A stretch of 29,658 nt of DNA from a virus. Below the pieces are notes generated by a model, which was not told the DNA's origin, did not search any database, and was given only the letters and a program-made list of their open reading frames with translations. Below are positions 3,962 to 24,514 of the stretch, piece after piece. The DNA lies in the IMG/VR virus record IMGVR_UViG_3300050015_000171, positions 1 through 29,658 of that record. One strand, 5' to 3'. How positions within the stretch are numbered: the first letter of the stretch is position 1; each line of letters begins with the position of its first letter. The position numbers and the translations under genes were made by a program.

Positions 3962-3969
3962 TATTTATC
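3962..3969 (-). promoter_or_regulatory. Late promoter box GATAAATA
   Basis: The T4-type late box variant GATAAATA lies on the minus strand just at the stop of the upstream endonuclease gene. The predicted start near 3956 leaves a leader of about 29 nt before the glycosyltransferase-like gene. Confidence 0.55.
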
Positions 3970-5725
3970 AAGAAATATAAACGCTATTACCACAATCTAC
4001 AATTTTTGTAAAGTTATTGTCTTTCATATTTTGATATTCAGTTTTATTTGGATCAAAAGTATCTAATAAATTCTTTAATTTATGTTTCTGGCATTTTATC
4101 CGAGAATAAATCAAATTATCTTTAACATACCAATAATTTGGAAGTGAATTATGAATAAACTTTAAACCAATCAAATTATAAACCTCACCAGTATTCCATC
4201 TATTATCTGAATAAGAAATAATATTTTTAGGTAAATGTTGTTTTTTGAAAAAATTAAAAAGTTTAGAAGCACCGCCAACTACTATGGTATTTAATTTGGT
4301 TGAAAATCTTAACAATTCCCAATCAAAATTTTTATTGTATCTAGGTTTTCCAAAAGTCATTATAGAAACTAATTCATCATCTAAAAATAAACCATAAGAT
4401 ACATTAAAGTTTATGTATCCTTGAAAATGTGTCTGATTTAAAAATATCTCAGTTTGTTCTTTATCGACTATTTTTATTTTTGTTTTTCTTGCTGGTATTT
4501 TGTGAATTGATTTTTGTTCAATATGATTCTTTATATTGAACCTAGAGAATATAATATCATTTTTAAATTTCCATTCATGTTCAAATATATTAAAGAATTT
4601 TGGTTTAGGCAAATTAATGGAATAACATTCAGTTTTACCATTAAATTTTTCTTCCGGAAGATATTTATAGTCCTTTAATAATTTATGTAATATTTGTTCG
4701 TAATTCCACGCTTGATATAATGTTAGAGTTTCTTCCCAGATAGATTCTATGATGAAATCTTTATATTCTTTGGATGAATATCGTTCTTTTATTTTTGTTG
4801 AAATTCCCAATTTATAAAAGAATGTATTATCTGATTTCCGTGTGAACTTAAAGAAATATATAATTGCTGGAATATTTTTCTTTTCTGGAAATTTTTCAAA
4901 ATATTTATTAAAGTATCCACCGGCTATCTTATTATAACCACATTTTTGGCAATCACAACCTTTTAAATGATTTGTGGGGAACACCCAAAAAGATCCATGT
5001 TCTGGGCAAATAATTTCTATTTTTTCTTTTTGGTTGATATAGATAGATTTAGAGTAATCATAAAAACCATTATGAATTATATTTGATTCTTGAATAAATT
5101 CTTGGGTTGTTTTACTAAATAATTTTCTTTGAGATTCTCTTAAGCATTCAGGACAACCATTAAAAAATAAATGATTCGCTGGAGTTTGAGAGAAATAAGA
5201 GTTATGTAAATTACACCGTATTGGAATTTTTATATTCTTATTTTTATAATTTTTGATTTCACTATAATCAAATTTTTCTCCCCATTTTTCTTTTGCTCGT
5301 TTTAAAAAATGTTTAAATAATTTTTCTTGACAACATATTTTACATTTTTTACCTCCTTTTAATAATTTATAAGGAGATAAAGAAAAAATAATATTGTGGA
5401 TATTACATTTGATTTGTATGTCTTTGTGTATTTGCTGGTATGGCTCCAAAATTGTATATTTATTTGGATATTTTTTTTCTAATATTTCTTTAAAATCTTT
5501 TTTGCGTAATTTTTCTTGTTGAATTATTTTACCACAAAATTTACAACCGCAACCTTTCAGGATAAAATGGTTTAATGGAGAAACCTCAAAAATATTATTA
5601 TGCTCTATACATCTTATTTTTAATTTTTCCTTAAATGATGTATAATGCGTTTTGGAATAATCAAATCTATTTCCGTATTCATTAATAGATTTTTTAATAA
5701 ACTGCTGAGTTGTACACTTGTTCAT
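3968..5725 (-). CDS. Composite Hef-like homing endonuclease with zinc-cluster repeats
   Basis: This 585-residue protein has three parts. Residues about 20-262 contain four repeats, each with FDYSK-like, C-x2-H and a later C-x2-C (for example Cys39/His42 with Cys61/Cys64, and Cys240/His243 with Cys259/Cys262). They look like zinc-binding DNA-recognition modules. Residues about 285-365 ('IIYFFKF…YKLGIST.IKERY…E..LH') resemble a GIY-YIG/T5orf172-type nuclease core. The C-terminal segment, about 430-550, has 'SYGLFLDDELVSIMTFGKPR', 'LLRFSTKLNTIVVGGASKLF' and 'SYSDNRWNTGEVYNLIGLKF', the pattern of Hef-like endonucleases in T4-like phages. The gene is free-standing between gp23 and the glycosyltransferase-like gene, is very AT-rich and has a weak ribosome site, all typical of a mobile endonuclease gene. 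Target site and activity are unknown. Confidence 0.75.
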   Translation of the reverse strand: MNKCTTQQFIKKSINEYGNRFDYSKTHYTSFKEKLKIRCIEHNNIFEVSPLNHFILKGCGCKFCGKIIQQEKLRKKDFKEILEKKYPNKYTILEPYQQIHKDIQIKCNIHNIIFSLSPYKLLKGGKKCKICCQEKLFKHFLKRAKEKWGEKFDYSEIKNYKNKNIKIPIRCNLHNSYFSQTPANHLFFNGCPECLRESQRKLFSKTTQEFIQESNIIHNGFYDYSKSIYINQKEKIEIICPEHGSFWVFPTNHLKGCDCQKCGYNKIAGGYFNKYFEKFPEKKNIPAIIYFFKFTRKSDNTFFYKLGISTKIKERYSSKEYKDFIIESIWEETLTLYQAWNYEQILHKLLKDYKYLPEEKFNGKTECYSINLPKPKFFNIFEHEWKFKNDIIFSRFNIKNHIEQKSIHKIPARKTKIKIVDKEQTEIFLNQTHFQGYINFNVSYGLFLDDELVSIMTFGKPRYNKNFDWELLRFSTKLNTIVVGGASKLFNFFKKQHLPKNIISYSDNRWNTGEVYNLIGLKFIHNSLPNYWYVKDNLIYSRIKCQKHKLKNLLDTFDPNKTEYQNMKDNNFTKIVDCGNSVYIS

Positions 5726-10875: not shown

Positions 10876-12165
10876 TTATTTTTCTCCTGATTTTTTCTTC
10901 TTTGCTGGTGGTTTTGTTTCAGGTTCATCGAAAAATGCACTATTCTCTAAAGAGGCATTTCTTTCGGCTTCCTTATCAGCAATAGGTTTTTCAGTTTTTA
11001 TCTGTTTCTCCATTAATTCGATTTCATCATCTGAAAAACGTAAAATATTTTTATTTATCCATTCACGTGATACGTAACGATCAACGATTGGACCAGGATC
11101 AAATTGTTGTAACAATTCAATTCGTGTTGACCAAATTTCTTGTTCCTTAGCTTCCTGGAAAACTGAATCTTTTTGATAATCAAAAGTTATTTTTTCTCTA
11201 ATTGGATCCCACTCATCAACAAGTATGATGCCCTTAAGGACTAACTGAGATTTCAAAAGTTCTTTAAATAAATGATCGAACCGTTTGCGTATCTTTGTAA
11301 TAAATCTCGAAAACTTTACCTCATCCCGTGAGATTTCGGCGGATCTTCCCATACCAAAACCAGAATCAGATTTCAATCTTGAAGTAGGAACATGAAGAGC
11401 TTTGTATAACCTTTCTTGGAAATACATAATATCTTCTATTTGACCTAAATTGGTATTGGAGATTATTATACCAGCATCAATTGTGTATGTATGATATTGA
11501 TTATAAAGAGTTTCTTTGATTGTTAAATTCCCAACATCAATTTTTTCAGTCAAATATTCTATCTTAGTAATCCGATGATTTACATATTGATTCTCTTGAA
11601 CTAAGTGGGCTAAAGTTTTATATCCAAATTTACGTGCTAACTTATTTAAAGTATTTAAACCCAATTTTCCAGAAAAATTAGCGGCCGTTGTATCTTTATT
11701 GATTTCCAAAAAGTATTCATTTAATTTCCCAGCATTATCAATATGTTTCCAAACATCAGATGCTTTTGTACTTTTAGTTTCTCTAATAAAATCTACCAAT
11801 AAATCCAAACATTTTTTATCAAATTTAATGGTTTGATTTTTAAATACCTTTTCCTTATATTCAGGATTCAAAAAATTATCATGATTACGTTTAGAAAGAT
11901 TTTTACATCTTTGAATATAAATTTCGGTACCTTTAAATTCCTTAAATCCTTCTTTTTGTTTCTCAATTTGTTCTTCACGCCAAATAGGATCTTTATATAG
12001 TTCTATTACTTTATCAGTACCTTTTCTAAAATTCTCAATTGCAGATTGTTTACATCTTTCTGAATTAGGACCAGACGTTCTAGCTTTAGAAACACTCTTT
12101 GAAACCTTTTTATAAATTTTCTTTTTACGTTCAGGATCCAAATTTAATTTTTTATGATATTCCAA
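10876..12165 (-). CDS. 20: Portal gp20, downstream part: intein C-part plus C-extein
   Basis: From an in-frame TTG at 12165, residues 1-237 are the rest of an intein. They include a basic region with NUMOD3-like helices ('KARTSGPNSERCKQSAIENF') and the C-terminal splice block 'YHTYTIDAGIIISN'. From Thr238 the chain is portal: 'TNLGQIEDIMYFQERLYKAL' and 'HVPTSRLKSDSGF', matching the T4 gp20 segment that follows 'TLPGG'. The frame is the same as that of the upstream piece, the only break being one TAA at 12253-12255. No ATG or ribosome site exists before the extein, so the TTG is a track-style start rather than a convincing one. The two portal exteins add up to 532 residues, close to T4 gp20 (524). 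See the intein entry. Confidence 0.8.
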   Translation of the reverse strand: MEYHKKLNLDPERKKKIYKKVSKSVSKARTSGPNSERCKQSAIENFRKGTDKVIELYKDPIWREEQIEKQKEGFKEFKGTEIYIQRCKNLSKRNHDNFLNPEYKEKVFKNQTIKFDKKCLDLLVDFIRETKSTKASDVWKHIDNAGKLNEYFLEINKDTTAANFSGKLGLNTLNKLARKFGYKTLAHLVQENQYVNHRITKIEYLTEKIDVGNLTIKETLYNQYHTYTIDAGIIISNTNLGQIEDIMYFQERLYKALHVPTSRLKSDSGFGMGRSAEISRDEVKFSRFITKIRKRFDHLFKELLKSQLVLKGIILVDEWDPIREKITFDYQKDSVFQEAKEQEIWSTRIELLQQFDPGPIVDRYVSREWINKNILRFSDDEIELMEKQIKTEKPIADKEAERNASLENSAFFDEPETKPPAKKKKSGEK

Positions 12166-12798
12166 AGATTTTTTACTTACATTTTTACAATGTTCTTTAT
12201 ATTTTTCTGGTTCATTTTCTTTTAAATTTAAAACATAATTATTTTCTGAATGTTATAATAAATGATCTTTATGACCCATTTTAACCAAATTATTTGGATG
12301 ATTATTAAATCTATTAAAATCCTTGTGATGTGTTATTGTCTTTTTTGTATCTTTATATTTTTCATTATAAGTCCATACATTTTCTGGAAAATACTTAGAA
12401 ACCATTCTATGTACGAATTCCCATTCCTTAGTATCATTTTGATAAATCTGTTTATATTTACTAGGATTAGAATTTTGTATTTTTTCTTCACGTTCATATA
12501 GAGGTATTAAACTATCACCAACAACTAAATCTTTGGCATCCACTTTACCTCTACCAATTATAGGAAATCTATGATCCGGTGTACAAATAAGACTCTTACC
12601 ATTATCTAAATAAATTTTCATAACATCAGTATTTTTTCGAGTAACACCTGCCCATTCAATTAACCCAGGTACTATATGACCATTTGGATCACAACTATAA
12701 ACCCAATTTTCTTTTCCTTTATTAAATTCATCAATCAAAATGGATAGTTTTTCAGTTCTTCCATCTAATAATTTAATTTCAGTGTCTAAAGCAATACA
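11455..12798 (-). other. gp20 intein with HNH domain, interrupted by in-frame TAA
   Basis: The intein begins at Cys341 of gp20 ('CIALDTEIKLLDGRTEKL', block A) after 'TTLPAG' and has block B 'CTPDHRF'. An HNH endonuclease motif follows ('HHKDFNRFNNHPNNLVKMGH'), then NUMOD-like helices, and it ends 'DAGIIISN' before Thr. It spans 448 codon positions. The penultimate residue is Ser rather than the usual His, and the +1 residue is Thr. A TAA at 12253-12255 interrupts the frame just after the HNH motif, but the same frame resumes and runs to the end of gp20. The N-extein and C-extein join cleanly to a T4-like portal, so the borders are well supported. Splicing activity cannot be judged from sequence. 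Confidence 0.85.
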
Positions 12799-13818
12799 GC
12801 CCGCAGGAAGTGTAGTTACTTCAGTTCCTCTACCGCCTTCACGTCTAGGCAAGAAGAAATCCTCTTGCATGGATAAAAACTTCTTATCATCACGGACCGC
12901 ACCAGTATTAGAATCATAAACAATTTTATTTCTAAAATCATTCATAATTACTTTGATATATTGTTCTGCACGATTTGTTGGCATGTTACCAACATCAATA
13001 TAAAATACTCTTCTTTCAGCGGCTCTACTTAATCTATAAATTACATGCGCGTCTTCCATCGCCCGTAATTGATTTAATGGTTTAATAGCTTTATGTAAAT
13101 AGCTAACAACCATATTACGTGTACTGTCAATTTGTCCAGAATGCACATAACAAATAGAATCAGTTGCGATTTTTACGCCGACTGCGGTTGTACTTTCTAC
13201 GTTTACAATACCGCGTTCATTGTAAAGATAATATTCGAGAATGGCATCAATAATTTCAACGCCACCTTCTCCTAATTTCTTTTTAATTTCACGAATCTTT
13301 CGTACTCTTCTAGGATCTAGATAACGTAATTCTTGAATACCTTTATCAGGATCTTCAGGATTAATCATTATATGATAAAAAAGTCTACCATCAACATACC
13401 AGCGCCGGAAGATTTCCATTCCATCTTCATTGAAATTTAAAAGTTTTAGGATTTCCTCAAAGGCCTCTCTAATGTCATTTTTAATAGAATCTGGTTGATC
13501 TAGTTGTTCTAGATTCACTTGTATAGCAGGTTTATTGTCCTCTTGAACCACTGCATCCGTTATAATGTCCTCTATGGCCTGTTCACATTCAGGTTGCATC
13601 GCCATATCTTTATATCTGGTGATGAGTTCACTCTCATTTTTGGCAGTCCCCTCCAAATCGACATACGTCCCGTATATACCACCACTTGCAATTTGAGACG
13701 CACCATCTAGGTTCGCCGGGATTGCAAATGACTTGAATTTTTGGACCGGGTCATGATCACCAAATTGGAATCCCAATAAACGGAATGACTCCAATAAAAA
13801 TTTATTTTTTATTGGCAT
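12253..13818 (-). CDS. 20: Portal gp20, upstream part: N-extein plus intein N-part
   Basis: Residues 1-340 are the portal N-terminal two thirds: 'LITRYKDMAMQPECEQAIED', 'FRRWYVDGRLFYHIM', 'LRYLDPRRVRKIREI', 'YRLSRAAERRVFYIDVGNMP', 'FFLPRREGGRGTEVTTLPAG'. These match T4-like gp20, which forms the dodecameric ring at the head vertex, docks the terminase and carries DNA in and out. Residues 341-521 are intein, and the ORF then ends in TAA. The start ATG 13818 has GAGG 9 nt upstream and lies inside the last codons of the GIY-YIG endonuclease gene (10-nt overlap). If the TAA is real and not suppressed, no full portal could be made, which is hard to reconcile with an essential gene. Confidence 0.9.
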   Translation of the reverse strand: MPIKNKFLLESFRLLGFQFGDHDPVQKFKSFAIPANLDGASQIASGGIYGTYVDLEGTAKNESELITRYKDMAMQPECEQAIEDIITDAVVQEDNKPAIQVNLEQLDQPDSIKNDIREAFEEILKLLNFNEDGMEIFRRWYVDGRLFYHIMINPEDPDKGIQELRYLDPRRVRKIREIKKKLGEGGVEIIDAILEYYLYNERGIVNVESTTAVGVKIATDSICYVHSGQIDSTRNMVVSYLHKAIKPLNQLRAMEDAHVIYRLSRAAERRVFYIDVGNMPTNRAEQYIKVIMNDFRNKIVYDSNTGAVRDDKKFLSMQEDFFLPRREGGRGTEVTTLPAGCIALDTEIKLLDGRTEKLSILIDEFNKGKENWVYSCDPNGHIVPGLIEWAGVTRKNTDVMKIYLDNGKSLICTPDHRFPIIGRGKVDAKDLVVGDSLIPLYEREEKIQNSNPSKYKQIYQNDTKEWEFVHRMVSKYFPENVWTYNEKYKDTKKTITHHKDFNRFNNHPNNLVKMGHKDHLL

Positions 13819-14414
13819 GTGATAGCCTCAAGCTTATGACATTTAAAACCTTTATGGTGTTTTCTTTTTCCTTGATTTACAGAAATCATATGACTGTGAT
13901 TTAAATTATTAGATTTACAAAATTTAGTAAGATTATTTATTTCTTTTTCTTTGCCATTTGGATAAATAATCAACCAATTTTGGGCTTTAGCTTCAGAAAC
14001 ACTAATAGAAATTTTTCTTTTTTGTGCCTCAGTATGTTTATATCCCTTATGTGCGTCACTTAATTTTTTTCTTAATTCCGGTGATGCCTTTTTACCCCAG
14101 TTCCAATGTTTTTCTCCAGAGGGACACCCACCTTCACCTCCAGGTGTTAAATTAATTAGAGGTCCTGTACCTAAACATTTTCTACCAAATTTTTCTATCA
14201 ACATAATTTCATTTCGATAAGCAGTTATTTCAGATTTTCCTTTATAATAAAATTCTACTTTGGGTTTAATACCTAATTTATTATGAACCTTCATAATATT
14301 TTGAAAATGCTTGCTATGATATCCTTCAAATCGGTTATCTTTTCCTTTACCAACATAAAAAGGTTCAGGAATTTCTTTATCAGTTCTATACCAAATATAA
14401 GTGTAATATGTCAT
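13809..14414 (-). CDS. GIY-YIG homing endonuclease with NUMOD3 helices
   Basis: The 201-residue protein opens with 'YYTYIWYRTD…PFYVGKGK', the GIY-YIG class core in its 'YVGKG' variant. 'AYRNEIMLIEKFG' follows with the catalytic Glu region. Next come tandem NUMOD3-like helices ('SPELRKKLSDAHKG' and 'TEAQKRKISISVSEA') and an IENR1/NUMOD1-like DNA-binding tail ('IYPNGKEKEINNLTKFCKSN'). This is the architecture of phage Seg-type homing endonucleases, which cut an allele lacking them and spread by repair. It lies immediately upstream of gp20 and overlaps its start, so its likely target is the gp19-gp20 junction. That is inferred from the usual habit of free-standing endonucleases. Confidence 0.85.
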   Translation of the reverse strand: MTYYTYIWYRTDKEIPEPFYVGKGKDNRFEGYHSKHFQNIMKVHNKLGIKPKVEFYYKGKSEITAYRNEIMLIEKFGRKCLGTGPLINLTPGGEGGCPSGEKHWNWGKKASPELRKKLSDAHKGYKHTEAQKRKISISVSEAKAQNWLIIYPNGKEKEINNLTKFCKSNNLNHSHMISVNQGKRKHHKGFKCHKLEAITCQ

Positions 14415-17454: not shown

Positions 17455-18750
17455 CTATGGTGTTGTTATCCATCCAGCTTTTTCTAGATTTTTTAATCTG
17501 TCCATATCAATTGAGGCTCGTTGTAATTCTTGTTCAGCATATTGATCCCAAATATCACTTTGAGCACTTTTCCATATATCTTTTTCAGTAAGTACTACTT
17601 CTTCAGCTTCTTGGTGAGATTCTACCCATCCATATGGAGTTAAATCATGTTCCAATTGGGAAGAAAATTGTCCTTCTAAATCTTCACGGACAGAAGCTTC
17701 CATCATATCTCTAAAATGTTTTTGTGTTGTCAACCATGAAAAGGTAACAAGAGTCATTACCAAATCATCATGATGTCCTTCCGCGGCTTGGTACTTGTCA
17801 CCTTTTAATTCAAAGGTACTTAATTCAGATTTTATATCATTATCATAAATTAATAGTCTGTTAGTTTCGATTAAGGTTTTTAAGTTGGCACAACCTGTAC
17901 GTCTAACTGGAGCACTCATTTTTACTCCACGTTGGACATTTTTACCTGTATGTCCAAAACCAGTGGCTAGAATTTGACCTGAACGGCCTTTAGTGGCCAC
18001 ATAAAGAATATTTGGATATTCATGTATGTGATGTAAATCATCTGAAACTTGGAATCCAGGTCCATCCATTTCTATAATAATAAAAGCATTATTATACCTT
18101 AATGCGATAGGAACTATTTGGTCCGCAAATAAAATTGGAGGCACAGTATTAGATCTGTATTTTGCAACTACTTCATATGGAGAAGTAGTAACATCAATTA
18201 CCGCGAATGCAGAATAATCTAATTGTCGACCTCTTGCAGTATCAACCGCAATCACATAGACTCTAGGTTCATCTTTTGTTCTTGTAGGATCTTTATAAAC
18301 ATCCAAACCATTTTGACTATACTTAGGCGGCATGATTGGCATCAATTTTAAAATTCTGCCATTTATTAAAGTAGCTCCAGATCCTAAGAATTCACAATTA
18401 TGGGATAAAAGATCATCACCATAATAAACTTGATCTTTACCGGAATTTACAACACAGTAAAAATCTGTGTCTTTTTCTTCCAATTTAATTGAACGAATAT
18501 AATGTAACGAATTATTTAATCCTAATAAGCAATCACCAATTTTAAGAACACCGGCATAAATTGGTTTTGTATTCCATAATACAAAAATATGATCTTCGGT
18601 TACTGTCGTTTTCGCGCCATTTTGAAGTGTAATGTGAAGTACTCGGTCTTTTTTATATTTTCGTATCCCGGAGAAATTTTCATACCCATTAGGTGTGAGA
18701 ATTTTATAACGATTAGGATTTTCTTTTAAACCTTCAAGAATTGTAGACAT
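17455..18750 (-). CDS. 17: Terminase gp17 C-part: split-intein C-fragment plus nuclease extein
   Basis: Residues 1-118 are an intein C-fragment: 'YKILTPNGYENFSGIRK', block B 'VTEDHIF' (T-x-x-H, His54), and a C-terminal 'GDDLLSHN' with the His-Asn pair. The +1 residue is Cys119. From there the chain is terminase: 'CEFLGSGATLI', then the RNase H-like nuclease with 'VIAVDTARGRQLDYSAFAVI', 'FIIIEMDGPGFQVSDDL' and 'YQAAEGHHDDLVMTLV', whose Asp residues bind the catalytic metals that cut concatemeric DNA. The gene has its own ATG, 49 nt past the stop of the N-part, with purine-rich AAAGAAA upstream. Neither half is a complete terminase, so function depends on protein trans-splicing or on the halves associating. 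Confidence 0.93.
   Translation of the reverse strand: MSTILEGLKENPNRYKILTPNGYENFSGIRKYKKDRVLHITLQNGAKTTVTEDHIFVLWNTKPIYAGVLKIGDCLLGLNNSLHYIRSIKLEEKDTDFYCVVNSGKDQVYYGDDLLSHNCEFLGSGATLINGRILKLMPIMPPKYSQNGLDVYKDPTRTKDEPRVYVIAVDTARGRQLDYSAFAVIDVTTSPYEVVAKYRSNTVPPILFADQIVPIALRYNNAFIIIEMDGPGFQVSDDLHHIHEYPNILYVATKGRSGQILATGFGHTGKNVQRGVKMSAPVRRTGCANLKTLIETNRLLIYDNDIKSELSTFELKGDKYQAAEGHHDDLVMTLVTFSWLTTQKHFRDMMEASVREDLEGQFSSQLEHDLTPYGWVESHQEAEEVVLTEKDIWKSAQSDIWDQYAEQELQRASIDMDRLKNLEKAGWITTP
18397..18750 (-). other. Split intein, C-fragment (118 residues) in gp17
   Basis: Codons 1-118 of the downstream terminase gene. It carries block B (T51-x-x-H54), a 'AGVLKIGDCLLG' segment and blocks F/G ending in His117-Asn118, with Cys119 as the first extein residue. 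It is the large part of an intein whose small N-fragment is at 18803-18892. Confidence 0.88.
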
Positions 18751-18799
18751 TGATTTATTGTTTCTTTAGGATATTCCTTATAATTATTTTCAAAAATTC

Positions 18800-20704
18800 T
18801 TATTGTGGTAATCGTTCATATAATTCACCTATAGTCATTTTTACATCTTTCTGTAAAACAGAATCGTATAAGTATACATATGAAGTTGTACAAAAACTCC
18901 CAAATTCCTGATCGAATCTCTCCTGGCCGATCATCGCTACAGTACGATCCGCCCATTCCGGCTTTTCTCTACCAGGCACTTCAGTATAGTGGACCTCTAG
19001 AGGTATAAATTGATTCCATTTTGGATGAGTATGATCTAAATGAGCCTTCTCCCAAAGTTCATAGAATAAATTCATTCCATTAGGAGTAGAAACGATAATA
19101 ATCTTTGATGTCATACCCTGAGAAATAACCGGGTATGTAGAGGTCCAAAATTTATCGGCTAATTTAGCTTCAATATGTGCAAATTCATCTAAGAAAATAA
19201 CATTGAATGTTTTACCACGTACTGAGGCTCCTGAAGTAGCATGAGCCGAAATTACAGAACCATTTTCTAATTCAATTCGAGTTTTATTCCAAACCTTTAC
19301 ACCTTGTTGAAGCCACATTGGTAATAATTCAAATGCCAATTGTAATCGGGACATCAATTCTACAGCCGTGTCTCTCTTATTTGCTAAAATTCCAACGCTT
19401 TTATATTTGTTAAAAAGAATATAATGTAAGAAATAAGCAATCATCGTGGTTGAATTATGTGTAGGTATCATAGTTTCCCCACATAGGAACATATGATCTT
19501 CATTATCAACTTGAATGCATCTTACAGGAACACTTTTAATTTTTTTTATTTTTGAAATAAATAAAACATTTGTGTTCCATCTTTCTGGTCCAATTTGAAT
19601 TTTTTGTCTCTTTAATTTCCTAGTTAATCGGAATACATCAAATTTGTGTGTTTTAAAATTTACAGAATAATATTTTTGTCCTTTAATTATTCTAAAGCTT
19701 ACACGGCTTTTAATTCCTAGGGAAGATAAAATTTCTCTGAATCCATCTATAATATGTTTTTTCTTTTGAAAAAAAGAACAATTGCCTTTTTTACCACAAG
19801 TGCCATCTGTATCCATTAGACCCTGAATTAAAGCCAATCTTTGAGATATGGAGCCTCGTAAATATAATTCCGGTATATGTTTATTATTTAATAGATTTTC
19901 AACTCTTAATTGTGGATATAATCCTTTTATATTCCATGATGAAAATTTTTGGTCTTTTTTCTTTTTAAATTTACTTTCTGCTAAAGTATAATCATTTTTT
20001 ATGATATACTGAGAAATTTCCTCCATATCAGAATATAATTGAGTAAATCTTGAATCACAAGAATTACCATCACCCAACCAAATACCTAAAATATATGGAT
20101 CTATAGGTAATTTTTTGGATGAAAATTGTACCGCATCAGGTAATAATATATGAAGATTGCTATGGTTTTTCTTTTTTTGTTTTACTAATTTTTTTAATTG
20201 CTGTGTAGTTACAACTTTTTCACCAGTTCTCCAATCAGAACAATTAACTTTCCATAAATGATCGGCATCAGCCACTACATAATCACCATTATCAAATTCA
20301 ATTTTAAAACAATCATGATTTTCCATAATTTCTGTAATCATGGTTACATTTGCAGATTTTCCGTCAGTTCCTAATATAGTATCACCAATTTTAAGATTTG
20401 CCATATTTGTCCAACCGTATGGTGTAGGAATTGGAGTATCTAAAGCTAATGCTTTTCCGCTCTGACGAGGCATAACAGTAATGACGAATCGTTCCTCATG
20501 TACTGTTTTAACAAGGTTTGCTTGGAATTTCCATAACTTAAAATCAGTGACACCAGCATCAATGGTAACAACCTGAATATATTTTGTAATAAAATAAATC
20601 GGGTCTTCAGAACACTTTTGTAGTTCCTCTAGACGTTTTGGTGTCCATTGTACGTTAACTGCAATATCTTTAAGTGCATGGTTTCCTAGATATGATGATT
20701 CCAT
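18800..20704 (-). CDS. 17: Terminase gp17 N-part: ATPase extein, class 3-like intein, split-intein N-fragment
   Basis: Residues 1-84 and 418-604 form the packaging ATPase; residues 85-417 are a continuous intein; residues 605-634 are the short N-fragment of a second, split intein. Removing the first intein joins 'MPRQSGK' to 'STTMIAYF', restoring the Walker A loop. Walker B with the catalytic Glu follows ('VIFLDEFAHI', Asp506-Glu507), then a coupling motif ('IIVSTPNGMNLFYELW'). The ATPase powers DNA translocation into the prohead through gp20. AGGATAAA precedes the ATG, and the gene follows gp16 by 19 nt. All exteins of gp17 add up to 584 residues, close to T4 gp17 (610), supporting the intein borders. 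Confidence 0.94.
   Translation of the reverse strand: MESSYLGNHALKDIAVNVQWTPKRLEELQKCSEDPIYFITKYIQVVTIDAGVTDFKLWKFQANLVKTVHEERFVITVMPRQSGKALALDTPIPTPYGWTNMANLKIGDTILGTDGKSANVTMITEIMENHDCFKIEFDNGDYVVADADHLWKVNCSDWRTGEKVVTTQQLKKLVKQKKKNHSNLHILLPDAVQFSSKKLPIDPYILGIWLGDGNSCDSRFTQLYSDMEEISQYIIKNDYTLAESKFKKKKDQKFSSWNIKGLYPQLRVENLLNNKHIPELYLRGSISQRLALIQGLMDTDGTCGKKGNCSFFQKKKHIIDGFREILSSLGIKSRVSFRIIKGQKYYSVNFKTHKFDVFRLTRKLKRQKIQIGPERWNTNVLFISKIKKIKSVPVRCIQVDNEDHMFLCGETMIPTHNSTTMIAYFLHYILFNKYKSVGILANKRDTAVELMSRLQLAFELLPMWLQQGVKVWNKTRIELENGSVISAHATSGASVRGKTFNVIFLDEFAHIEAKLADKFWTSTYPVISQGMTSKIIIVSTPNGMNLFYELWEKAHLDHTHPKWNQFIPLEVHYTEVPGREKPEWADRTVAMIGQERFDQEFGSFCTTSYVYLYDSVLQKDVKMTIGELYERLPQ
18803..18892 (-). 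other. Split intein, N-fragment (30 residues) in gp17
   Basis: Codons 605-634 of the upstream terminase gene: Cys605, 'TTSYVYLYDSVLQ', then 'MTIGELYERLPQ' and TAA. It follows the extein 'QERFDQEFGSF'. It contains only the block A region. Block B is on the other polypeptide, so the split lies between blocks A and B, unlike the usual split site at the endonuclease position. Confidence 0.85.
19454..20452 (-). other. Continuous class 3-like intein with LAGLIDADG endonuclease in Walker A of gp17
   Basis: The 333-residue intein starts 'ALALDTPIPTPYGWTNMANL', that is with Ala instead of Cys or Ser. Block B is 'VADADHLWKV' (His65, Trp67), block F is 'VPVRCIQVDNEDHMFL' (Cys312) and block G is 'MIPTHN' (Thr331), followed by Ser. 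Trp, Cys and Thr at these places are the W-C-T triplet that defines class 3 inteins, where the block F Cys performs the first attack. Two LAGLIDADG helices, 'YILGIWLGDG' and 'ALIQGLMDTDG', indicate a homing endonuclease. The insertion lies between Lys84 of the GK pair and the following Ser. Confidence 0.9.
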
Positions 20705-23905: not shown

Positions 23906-24514
23906 ATGAATACACAAGAAATTTATGCAATTCAACCAGATGACTTCGGATGGCGTAAATTACCTACTGGTAATTATGTACGTTTAGGTACTGGAGTCAT
24001 TTTATGGAATGGAGTCATTTTAGGTAATGGAGTCACTCTATGTGATGGAGTCACTCTAGGTAATAGAGTCACTCTAGGTAATTTTGTCACTTTAGGTGAT
24101 TATGTACGTTTAGGTGATGGAGTCCGTTTAGGTAATGGAGTCCGTTTAGGTATTGGAGTCATTCTAGGTAATGATGTCACTTTAGGTAATTATGTACATT
24201 TAGGTAATTTTGTCCATTTAGGTAATGATGTCACTCTAGGTACTGGAGTCCGTTTAGGTGATAAAGTCTCTCTAATACCAGGGACTCAATTAGCATCTGG
24301 AGTCACTCTAGATAAAACACCAATTCAAATCCAATGCAATCCGTATCCAGTATACCAATATTCTCCAACTGAAATTGGAGTTGGTTGTGTAATCCATGAC
24401 TTTGAGTACTGGATGCGATCTGAGGATCCGGATGAACTTGAGTATCATCCAGAATGTAATCCTTGGAGTGTATATCGTAAAGCAATTCAATTTATTATTG
24501 AAAATAAATGGTAA
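23906..24514 (+). CDS. Left-handed beta-helix (hexapeptide repeat) protein
   Basis: The 202-residue protein contains about 18 consecutive hexapeptides of the form [L/I]-G-[N/D/T]-x-V-x, between residues about 25 and 135 ('VRLGTGVILWNGVILGNGVT' and so on). This is the signature of left-handed parallel beta-helices. In hexapeptide acyltransferases a His and other active-site residues interrupt the coils. Here the repeats are almost uninterrupted and no catalytic pattern is visible. The C-terminal part ('GVGCVIHDFEYWMRSEDPDE', 'NPWSVYRKAIQFII') is a separate small domain. At DNA level the region is an 18-bp tandem repeat, so it may change length easily. A structural or ice/surface-binding type role is conceivable, but function is unknown. 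Confidence 0.75.
   Translation: MNTQEIYAIQPDDFGWRKLPTGNYVRLGTGVILWNGVILGNGVTLCDGVTLGNRVTLGNFVTLGDYVRLGDGVRLGNGVRLGIGVILGNDVTLGNYVHLGNFVHLGNDVTLGTGVRLGDKVSLIPGTQLASGVTLDKTPIQIQCNPYPVYQYSPTEIGVGCVIHDFEYWMRSEDPDELEYHPECNPWSVYRKAIQFIIENKW
23985..24260 (+). repeat. 18-bp tandem repeat array encoding hexapeptides
   Basis: About 15 degenerate copies of an 18-bp unit of the type TTAGGTAATGGAGTCACT lie head to tail in the beta-helix gene. Copies vary at the x positions but keep the Leu-Gly and Val codons. Confidence 0.75.

What the first reader, a model, noticed from the sequence alone, without database searches (positions are those of the whole stretch)
18397..18892. Terminase gp17 is encoded in two genes joined by an atypically split intein
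The upstream gene ends with extein 'FDQEFGSF', then 30 intein residues starting at Cys605 and a TAA. 49 nt later a new ATG starts a gene with 118 intein residues (block B T-x-x-H, final His-Asn), then Cys and 'EFLGSGATLI' of the nuclease half. The split therefore lies between intein blocks A and B, leaving a very short N-fragment. Most natural split inteins are broken at the endonuclease site after about 90-110 residues. From memory, the AceL-TerL intein found in lake metagenomes has this same host protein and layout; the motif 'IT/LTPEGY..F.GI.K' at the start of the C-fragment looks related. No homing endonuclease lies in the gap. An assembled packaging ATPase-nuclease would then need trans-splicing, a possible control point on packaging.
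Basis: partly seen in the sequence, partly recalled or inferred. Interest (0 to 1): 0.88.

Follow-up and report, generated by a model that had tools for sequence, protein, structure and literature searches.

The report
Split terminase intein, possibly rewired chemistry
A phage DNA-packaging motor gene is broken in two inside a self-splicing protein insert of a known, widespread type; a DNA-cutting gene that once sat in the break has been deleted, and the splicing chemistry of this insert's small lineage appears to have changed.

Summary
The split is real. TerL (gp17) is encoded by two genes 49 nt apart, with the parts of an intein, split between blocks A and B, on their facing ends. It is a new member of a known kind: the AceL-TerL / GOS-TerL / Cat atypically split TerL inteins. 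One scan of viral contigs confirmed 358 relatives, and cultured T4-like phages have it too.

Two corrections. First, the intein does not start at Cys605: inteinless relatives read FDQEFG-CEF(L/I)GSG, so it starts at Ser603 (32 + 118 residues) and Cys605 is position 3. Second, the 49-nt gap is the remnant 3' end of a homing endonuclease gene that is intact in the nearest relatives.

The unusual part: of 52 distinct relatives, 48 have Asp/Glu at motif C2:4. The other four, the window among them, form one clade with Cys there, and their position 1 is Ser or Pro, never Cys. That is the core of class 3 chemistry (internal Cys nucleophile) inside a class 1 family, though the Trp and Thr of the WCT triplet are absent. 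If confirmed, it would be an independent origin of class-3-like splicing, in an atypically split intein. Splicing itself is untested, and no evidence supports a packaging control point.

The parts
18800..20704 (-). TerL N gene (634 aa): ATPase half with a continuous Walker A intein, ending in IntN
   Evidence: Terminase_6N
18899..19453 (-). N-extein segment after the Walker A intein, ending FDQEFG (residue 602)
   Evidence: aligned with inteinless TerL
18803..18898 (-). IntN, 32 residues, Ser603 to Gln634 (block A)
   Evidence: empty-site alignment and position-6 rule
18896..18898 (-). Ser603, intein position N1:1 (Cys605 of the finding, 18890-18892, is position 3)
18751..18799 (-). 49-nt intergenic gap
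18732..18806 (-). Remnant of the 3' end of a Vsr-like/DUF559 homing endonuclease gene (RIFENNYKEYPKETINQCLQFLK), overlapping the start of the C gene as in the relatives
   Evidence: profile hit E=1.6e-6 in the six-frame window; upstream part alone 6.5 bits, about 3 of 19,684 shuffles as high
17455..18750 (-). TerL C gene (431 aa): IntC followed by the nuclease half
   Evidence: Terminase_6C
18397..18750 (-). IntC, 118 residues (blocks B, F, G), ending Ser-His-Asn
18454..18456 (-). Cys99 of the C gene, motif C2:4 (block F:4): proposed internal nucleophile
18394..18396 (-). [quoted passage not shown]
17458..18396 (-). C-extein, nuclease half of TerL (DTARG at 170, GHHDDLVM at 325 of the C gene product)

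Best explanation
Two precursors are made: (N-extein with a cis intein)-IntN32 and IntC118-(C-extein). The intein fragments associate and ligate the ATPase half to the nuclease half, giving a scarless ...FDQEFG-CEFLGSG... TerL. The gene was split with a homing endonuclease gene sitting between blocks A and B, and it stayed split after that gene was deleted in this phage, leaving its last ~25 codons. In this small clade the step that starts splicing is most likely no longer carried by residue 1 but by the internal Cys99 at motif C2:4, which attacks the bond before Ser603 and passes the N-extein to Cys+1, before Asn118 cyclises. Shown here: anatomy, boundary, endonuclease remnant, residue switch. 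Inferred: that splicing occurs (about 0.9) and that Cys99 rather than Ser603 starts it (about 0.55).
For: Intein homology; intact TerL halves under purifying selection (dN/dS about 0.05-0.16 in exteins, 0.18-0.48 in IntC); conserved His-Asn|Cys in the clade and nearly all relatives; empty sites that fix the junction; same split with an intact endonuclease in L003/L015/L028 and its remnant in the gap. For Cys99: 48 of 52 distinct inteins have Asp/Glu at C2:4 and all these have Cys1 or Ser1; the four with Cys there have Ser1 (2) or Pro1 (2) and form one clade, 100/98; the Pro1 pair is under purifying selection (dN/dS 0.22 IntC, 0.27 IntN) with different Pro codons (CCG, CCT).
Against: No splicing experiment. 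The window itself has Ser1, a working nucleophile in GOS-TerL (PMC11766414). Cys at F:4 is the second most common residue there in inteins generally (PMC4031507). [quoted passage not shown] The clade has only four full members, and its nearest neighbour in the tree is uncertain (long branches).
Confidence: 0.8

Rival explanations
1. Ordinary class 1 chemistry: Ser603 is the first nucleophile, as in GOS-TerL (Ser1/Cys+1), and the Asp-to-Cys change at C2:4 is tolerated but not catalytic.
For: Ser1 with Cys+1 is frequent in this family (23 other distinct members) and active in GOS-TerL (PMC11766414). Cys at F:4 also occurs outside class 3 (PMC4031507).
Against: All 23 other Ser1 members keep Asp at C2:4. 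The window is not in their clade. Two clade members have Pro1, which cannot perform an acyl shift, but are conserved.
Confidence: 0.3
2. One reading: Cys605 is the first residue and nucleophile, shifted by two residues, leaving Ser-Phe in the product.
For: All four clade members have a Cys at position 2 or 3, which is rare in the other members.
Against: It breaks the position-6 rule that all 52 distinct members obey; needs an insertion and an equal deletion to keep the 22-residue distance to the IG-x-LYE motif; and leaves residues seen in none of 16 distinct inteinless contigs.
Confidence: 0.07
3. No ligation: the two TerL halves work as separate proteins, with the intein parts serving at most as a docking pair, like the genes-in-pieces ribonucleotide reductase of a T4-like phage.
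For: A precedent exists for a gene split by a homing endonuclease that works in pieces (cited in PMC3322345 and PMC10448857). Some catalytic positions vary in the clade (Pro1; block B Thr is Ala in L003 and L028).
Against: Asn at the intein end, the penultimate His and Cys+1 are kept in the clade and across nearly all relatives, which docking alone would not require; related AceL-TerL and GOS-TerL splice in vitro (PMC11766414).
Confidence: 0.06
4. Assembly or sequencing artefact in one continuous gene.
For: A single contig covers the junction, and an exact 33-base search across it found no second one. A stop codon elsewhere in the window is absent from a near-identical contig.
Against: The genes are in different frames with an endonuclease remnant between them, and the same split is in three independent contigs.
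Confidence: 0.02

Closest known systems
AceL-TerL, GOS-TerL and the consensus Cat intein (atypically split TerL inteins; Cat = PDB 6dsl)
   Same: Host protein TerL, split between blocks A and B, short IntN (25-37 aa in the literature, 32 here), Cys+1, IntC homologous to CatC (E=1.6e-11; PMC11766414).
   Different: Cys instead of Asp at motif C2:4 together with no Cys at position 1; a recognisable endonuclease remnant in the gap. The AceL and GOS sequences themselves were not available to align.
AceL NrdHF, described in 2020 as the first naturally split class 3 intein (PMC7891396)
   Same: Split intein in a phage gene with fractured organisation; no Cys at position 1; Cys at C2:4; departs from the WCT triplet (MCT there, F-C-S here).
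   Different: NrdHF is split at the usual endonuclease site (98 + 48) with Ala1 and Ser+1, and keeps the Thr; here 32 + 118 in TerL, Ser1 or Pro1, Cys+1.
gp17A/gp17B of Aeromonas phage PX29 and the terminase genes of Campylobacter, Vibrio, Providencia and Serratia phages
   Same: TerL in two genes with intein parts on the facing ends; PX29 is annotated as such in its record; some keep an endonuclease in or fused to the break.
   Different: Those for which an N part was read have Cys1 and Asp/Glu at C2:4; endonucleases of other families (GIY-YIG, HNH) in most.
Fractured genes with split inteins and Vsr-like homing endonucleases (Dassa et al. 2009, known to me by title and from citations; not held)
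   Same: A free-standing endonuclease gene separates the intein parts in L003, L015 and L028; its C-terminal domain matches DUF559 / MTES_1575.
   Different: The endonuclease gene is deleted in the window.

Membership tests
Atypically split TerL inteins (AceL/GOS/Cat type) | Inserted in T4-like TerL at the QE-x-x | C(E/S)F site | tested here: met
Atypically split TerL inteins (AceL/GOS/Cat type) | Split between blocks A and B, IntN of about 25-40 residues | tested here: met
   32 residues
Atypically split TerL inteins (AceL/GOS/Cat type) | IntC homologous to the Cat consensus | tested here: met
   PDB 6dsl chain B, E=1.6e-11
Atypically split TerL inteins (AceL/GOS/Cat type) | Trans-splicing activity | not testable with these tools
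   needs expression of both fragments
Class 3 inteins | No Cys at N1:1 (criterion of PMC7891396) | tested here: met
   Ser in window and L015, Pro in L003 and L028. Ser is itself nucleophilic, so this is weak for the window alone
Class 3 inteins | Cys at C2:4 (block F:4) | tested here: met
   4 of 4 in the clade, 0 of 48 elsewhere
Class 3 inteins | Trp at N3:12 (block B:12) | tested here: not met
   Phe at His+2 (TEDHIF)
Class 3 inteins | Thr at C1:5 (block G:5) | tested here: not met
   Ser (SHN)
Class 3 inteins | Branched thioester on the C2:4 Cys | not testable with these tools
   needs mutants and trapping
GOS-like Ser1 class 1 TerL inteins | Ser at position 1 with Cys+1 | tested here: met
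GOS-like Ser1 class 1 TerL inteins | Asp at C2:4, as in the 23 other Ser1 members | tested here: not met
   Cys99
GOS-like Ser1 class 1 TerL inteins | Groups with the Ser1/Asp members in a tree | tested here: not met
   separate clade, 100/98; (GOS-TerL itself not in the tree)
Fractured gene with homing endonuclease | Endonuclease gene between the intein parts | tested here: not met
   only a 3' remnant in the window; intact in L003, L015, L028

The most novel reading that the evidence does not exclude
This clade is a natural, independent conversion of a class 1 split intein to internal-nucleophile (class-3-like) splicing, without the full WCT triplet and in an atypically split intein, so that the short IntN carries no needed nucleophile and both nucleophiles sit on IntC-C-extein.
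Probability: 0.5. Interest if true: 0.68.

Novelty: new variant of a known kind. Interest (0 to 1): 0.5.

Why it matters
The split TerL intein itself is not new. What would matter is the chemistry. Class 3 inteins were held to come from a single event (PMC4031507), and one structural study argued that they would not arise directly from class 1 inteins by accumulated mutations, after a grafted WCT motif gave no splicing (PMC7664689). A four-member clade inside a class 1 family, with residue 1 Ser or Pro and the C2:4 Asp replaced by Cys, makes that question directly testable with two small protein fragments. A 32-residue IntN without a needed nucleophile could also be useful for labelling. The survey further shows, at one gene, successive states of endonuclease-linked gene splitting: empty site, split with endonuclease, split without it, with at least 16 changes of endonuclease state on one tree.

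Tried and rejected
Cys605 as position 1: rejected on the empty sites and the position-6 rule. A real second split gene in the portal (in-frame TAA at 12255-12253): rejected, because a near-identical contig (L123, 99.96% over 4,777 b) is open there. Exact DNA search across the junction for a second contig of this phage: none. Cellular genomes: no relative of the clade. A DNA pattern for DFYCVVN-x-GK found no clade member beyond L003/L015/L028; a scan with the N part added one, L108, whose contig breaks off inside the endonuclease gene. PDB search with IntN alone gave nothing useful. DNA comparison of the bare 49-nt gap with the relatives was not significant by itself; the protein profile was. 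A first count of endonuclease changes by gap length (19) was replaced by one based on the total distance between the intein parts (16). Structure prediction was not run: the two fragments are not contiguous in the DNA, and a model would not tell the candidate nucleophiles apart.

Full report
Observation. On the minus strand, TerL is encoded by an N gene (20704..18800, 634 aa) and a C gene (18750..17455, 431 aa), 49 nt apart and in different frames. Pfam gives Terminase_6N for the first and Terminase_6C for the second. The facing ends hold intein sequence; IntC matches the consensus atypical intein CatC (PDB 6dsl) at E=1.6e-11 and the gp41-1 intein at 5.5e-7. The literal description in the finding is correct.

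Boundary. Relatives without the intein read FDQEFG-CEFLGSG (L004, L005, L121), FDQEFG-CEFIGSG (L110-L117) or YAQEYL-CEFLGSG (L006, L009, L012); two have another residue before EFLG (L120, L122) but the same spacing; 16 distinct contigs in all. The junction therefore lies after Gly602 and position 1 is Ser603. With this numbering all 52 distinct relatives with both parts have Thr, Ser or Gly at position 6; with Cys605 as position 1 the window has Val there. The distance from the junction to the I-x-x-x-Y motif (IGELYE in the window) is 22 residues in the window, L003, L014, L015 and Vibrio phage 1.244.A alike. Splicing after Gly602 restores the inteinless sequence without a scar; splicing before Cys605 would leave Ser-Phe, which none of the inteinless contigs has.

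Distribution. A scan of IMG/VR with a six-sequence alignment confirmed 358 relatives, of which 80 were kept. Cultured phages of Campylobacter, Vibrio, Aeromonas, Providencia and Serratia have such inteins in TerL too. The record of Aeromonas phage PX29 already notes an N-intein on gp17A and a GIY-YIG endonuclease with a C-intein on gp17B, and the paper on Campylobacter phage IBB_35 reports a terminase gene interrupted by an intein and a homing endonuclease (PMC3322345). AceL-TerL (25+104, Cys1), GOS-TerL (37+115, Ser1/Cys+1) and Cat (30+104) are the characterised members (PMC11766414). As a split TerL intein the finding is therefore a new member of a known kind.

The gap. The closest relatives L003, L015 and L028 have the same split, but with a gene of about 330-357 aa between the parts whose C-terminal domain matches DUF559 / MTES_1575, nuclease families of the Vsr-like type. 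A profile of these three has one significant hit in all six frames of the window, at 18806-18732, E=1.6e-6, aligned to profile positions 311-335 of 336. Part of that stretch overlaps the start of the C gene, so the part upstream of its ATG was tested alone: 6.5 bits, reached by about 3 of 19,684 shuffles. The gap is the 3' end of a deleted endonuclease gene. IntN ends LLQDRLLDK in L015 and LPQ in the window, so the deletion probably removed the end of IntN too. On a tree of 57 members, 34 have an endonuclease-sized insert between the parts and 23 do not, with at least 16 changes, while only two members are unsplit. L092 (37 nt) against L094/L095 (642 nt), and L097 (52 nt) against L099 (1,128 nt), differ in this while their inteins are nearly identical. 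Losses and gains were not told apart in general; in the window the remnant shows a loss. Intein-bearing and empty alleles come from the same metagenomes, going by contig names (L028 and L115; L003 and L121; L015 and L009).

Chemistry. Among 52 distinct inteins, 25 have Cys1 with Asp or Glu at C2:4, 23 have Ser1 with Asp, and four have Cys at C2:4: the window and L015 (Ser1), L003 and L028 (Pro1). These four are one clade with 100/98 support, separate from the Ser1/Asp members and placed among Cys1 members; the exact neighbour is uncertain because of long branches. Pro cannot start splicing by an acyl shift, yet the Pro1 pair is under purifying selection (dN/dS 0.22 in IntC, 0.27 in IntN), uses different Pro codons and keeps His-Asn|Cys. 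The economical reading is that the Cys at C2:4 has taken over the first step, as in class 3 inteins, which one survey collected as inteins with no Cys at their N-end and a Cys at C2:4 (PMC7891396). Against it: the Trp and Thr of the WCT triplet are Phe and Ser here; Cys at F:4 is the second most common residue there in inteins generally (PMC4031507); and the window's own Ser1 could work as in GOS-TerL. I put the internal nucleophile at about 0.55 and Ser603 at about 0.3, and do not file this as a class 3 member because two defining features are not met. It may still work like one.

What is known of class 3. AceL NrdHF was described in 2020 as the first natural split class 3 intein, among 1,701 class 3 inteins that were otherwise all unsplit; it is split at the usual site (98+48) (PMC7891396). 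Class 3 inteins were thought to stem from one event (PMC4031507), and a class 1 intein given the WCT motif did not splice (PMC7664689). I found no paper in the held library on an atypically split class 3 or class-3-like intein, but most subscription papers are not held.

Context. The same N gene holds a second, continuous LAGLIDADG intein in Walker A with Ala1 and, read directly from the sequence, a complete WCT signature (for the endonuclease domain). The portal gene has an HNH intein; its in-frame stop is absent from a near-identical contig. Nothing found supports a regulatory role of TerL splicing.

Noticed in passing
window 19454-20452 (-): Continuous 333-aa LAGLIDADG intein in TerL Walker A (GK|ALALDTPIPT...MIPTHN|STT) with Ala1, Trp after the block B His (DHLW), Cys at F:4 (VRCIQV) and Thr at G:5 (PTHN): a complete class 3 signature. 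The site is empty in L003 and L004 and filled in L006-L012 and L014.
   Followed up: partly
window 10876-13818 (-): Portal (gp20) gene with an HNH intein (G|CIALDT...IISN|TNLG) and a single in-frame TAA at 12255-12253 with the frame open beyond. A near-identical contig (L123, 99.96% over 4,777 b) is open there, so this is a polymorphism or an error, not an established split. The portal of L003's and L004's contigs has no intein.
   Followed up: yes
window 13809-14414 (-) and 3968-5725 (-): Two further free-standing homing-endonuclease-like genes: a NUMOD3 gene overlapping the end of which the portal gene begins, and a 585-aa gene with a weak T5orf172 match next to the major capsid region.
   Followed up: no
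L030 4974-4979: IntN and IntC are separated by a single in-frame stop followed at once by ATG, while the close relative L014 is one continuous reading frame.
   Followed up: no
L003, L015, L028 and window, IntN/IntC against extein: Silent divergence between clade members is mostly lower in the intein and endonuclease than in the extein (for example L028 and L015: dS 0.56 in IntC, 1.20 in extein), which fits recent horizontal movement of the element.
   Followed up: partly
L002 610-2589, L022 2307-4637, L025 2766-4595: In cultured phages the endonuclease in the TerL break can be fused to the N part (Vibrio 1.244.A, GIY-YIG-like) or to the C part (Vibrio Va1, Vsr-like by eye; Aeromonas PX29, GIY-YIG), so different endonuclease families sit at the same A/B position.
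   Followed up: partly
L019 and L021 (Campylobacter phages CP21, IBB_35): TerL appears to carry several split inteins at different sites, with endonuclease genes in between.
   Followed up: no
window 18890-18892 and clade members: All four clade members have a Cys at intein position 2 or 3 (window and L015: 3; L003 and L028: 2) besides the C2:4 Cys; a disulfide or a helper role is possible and unexplained.
   Followed up: no
window 23906-24514 (+): 202-aa ORF made largely of repeated G-x-x-V-x-L-G-N/D hexapeptide-like units, as in left-handed beta-helix proteins.
   Followed up: no
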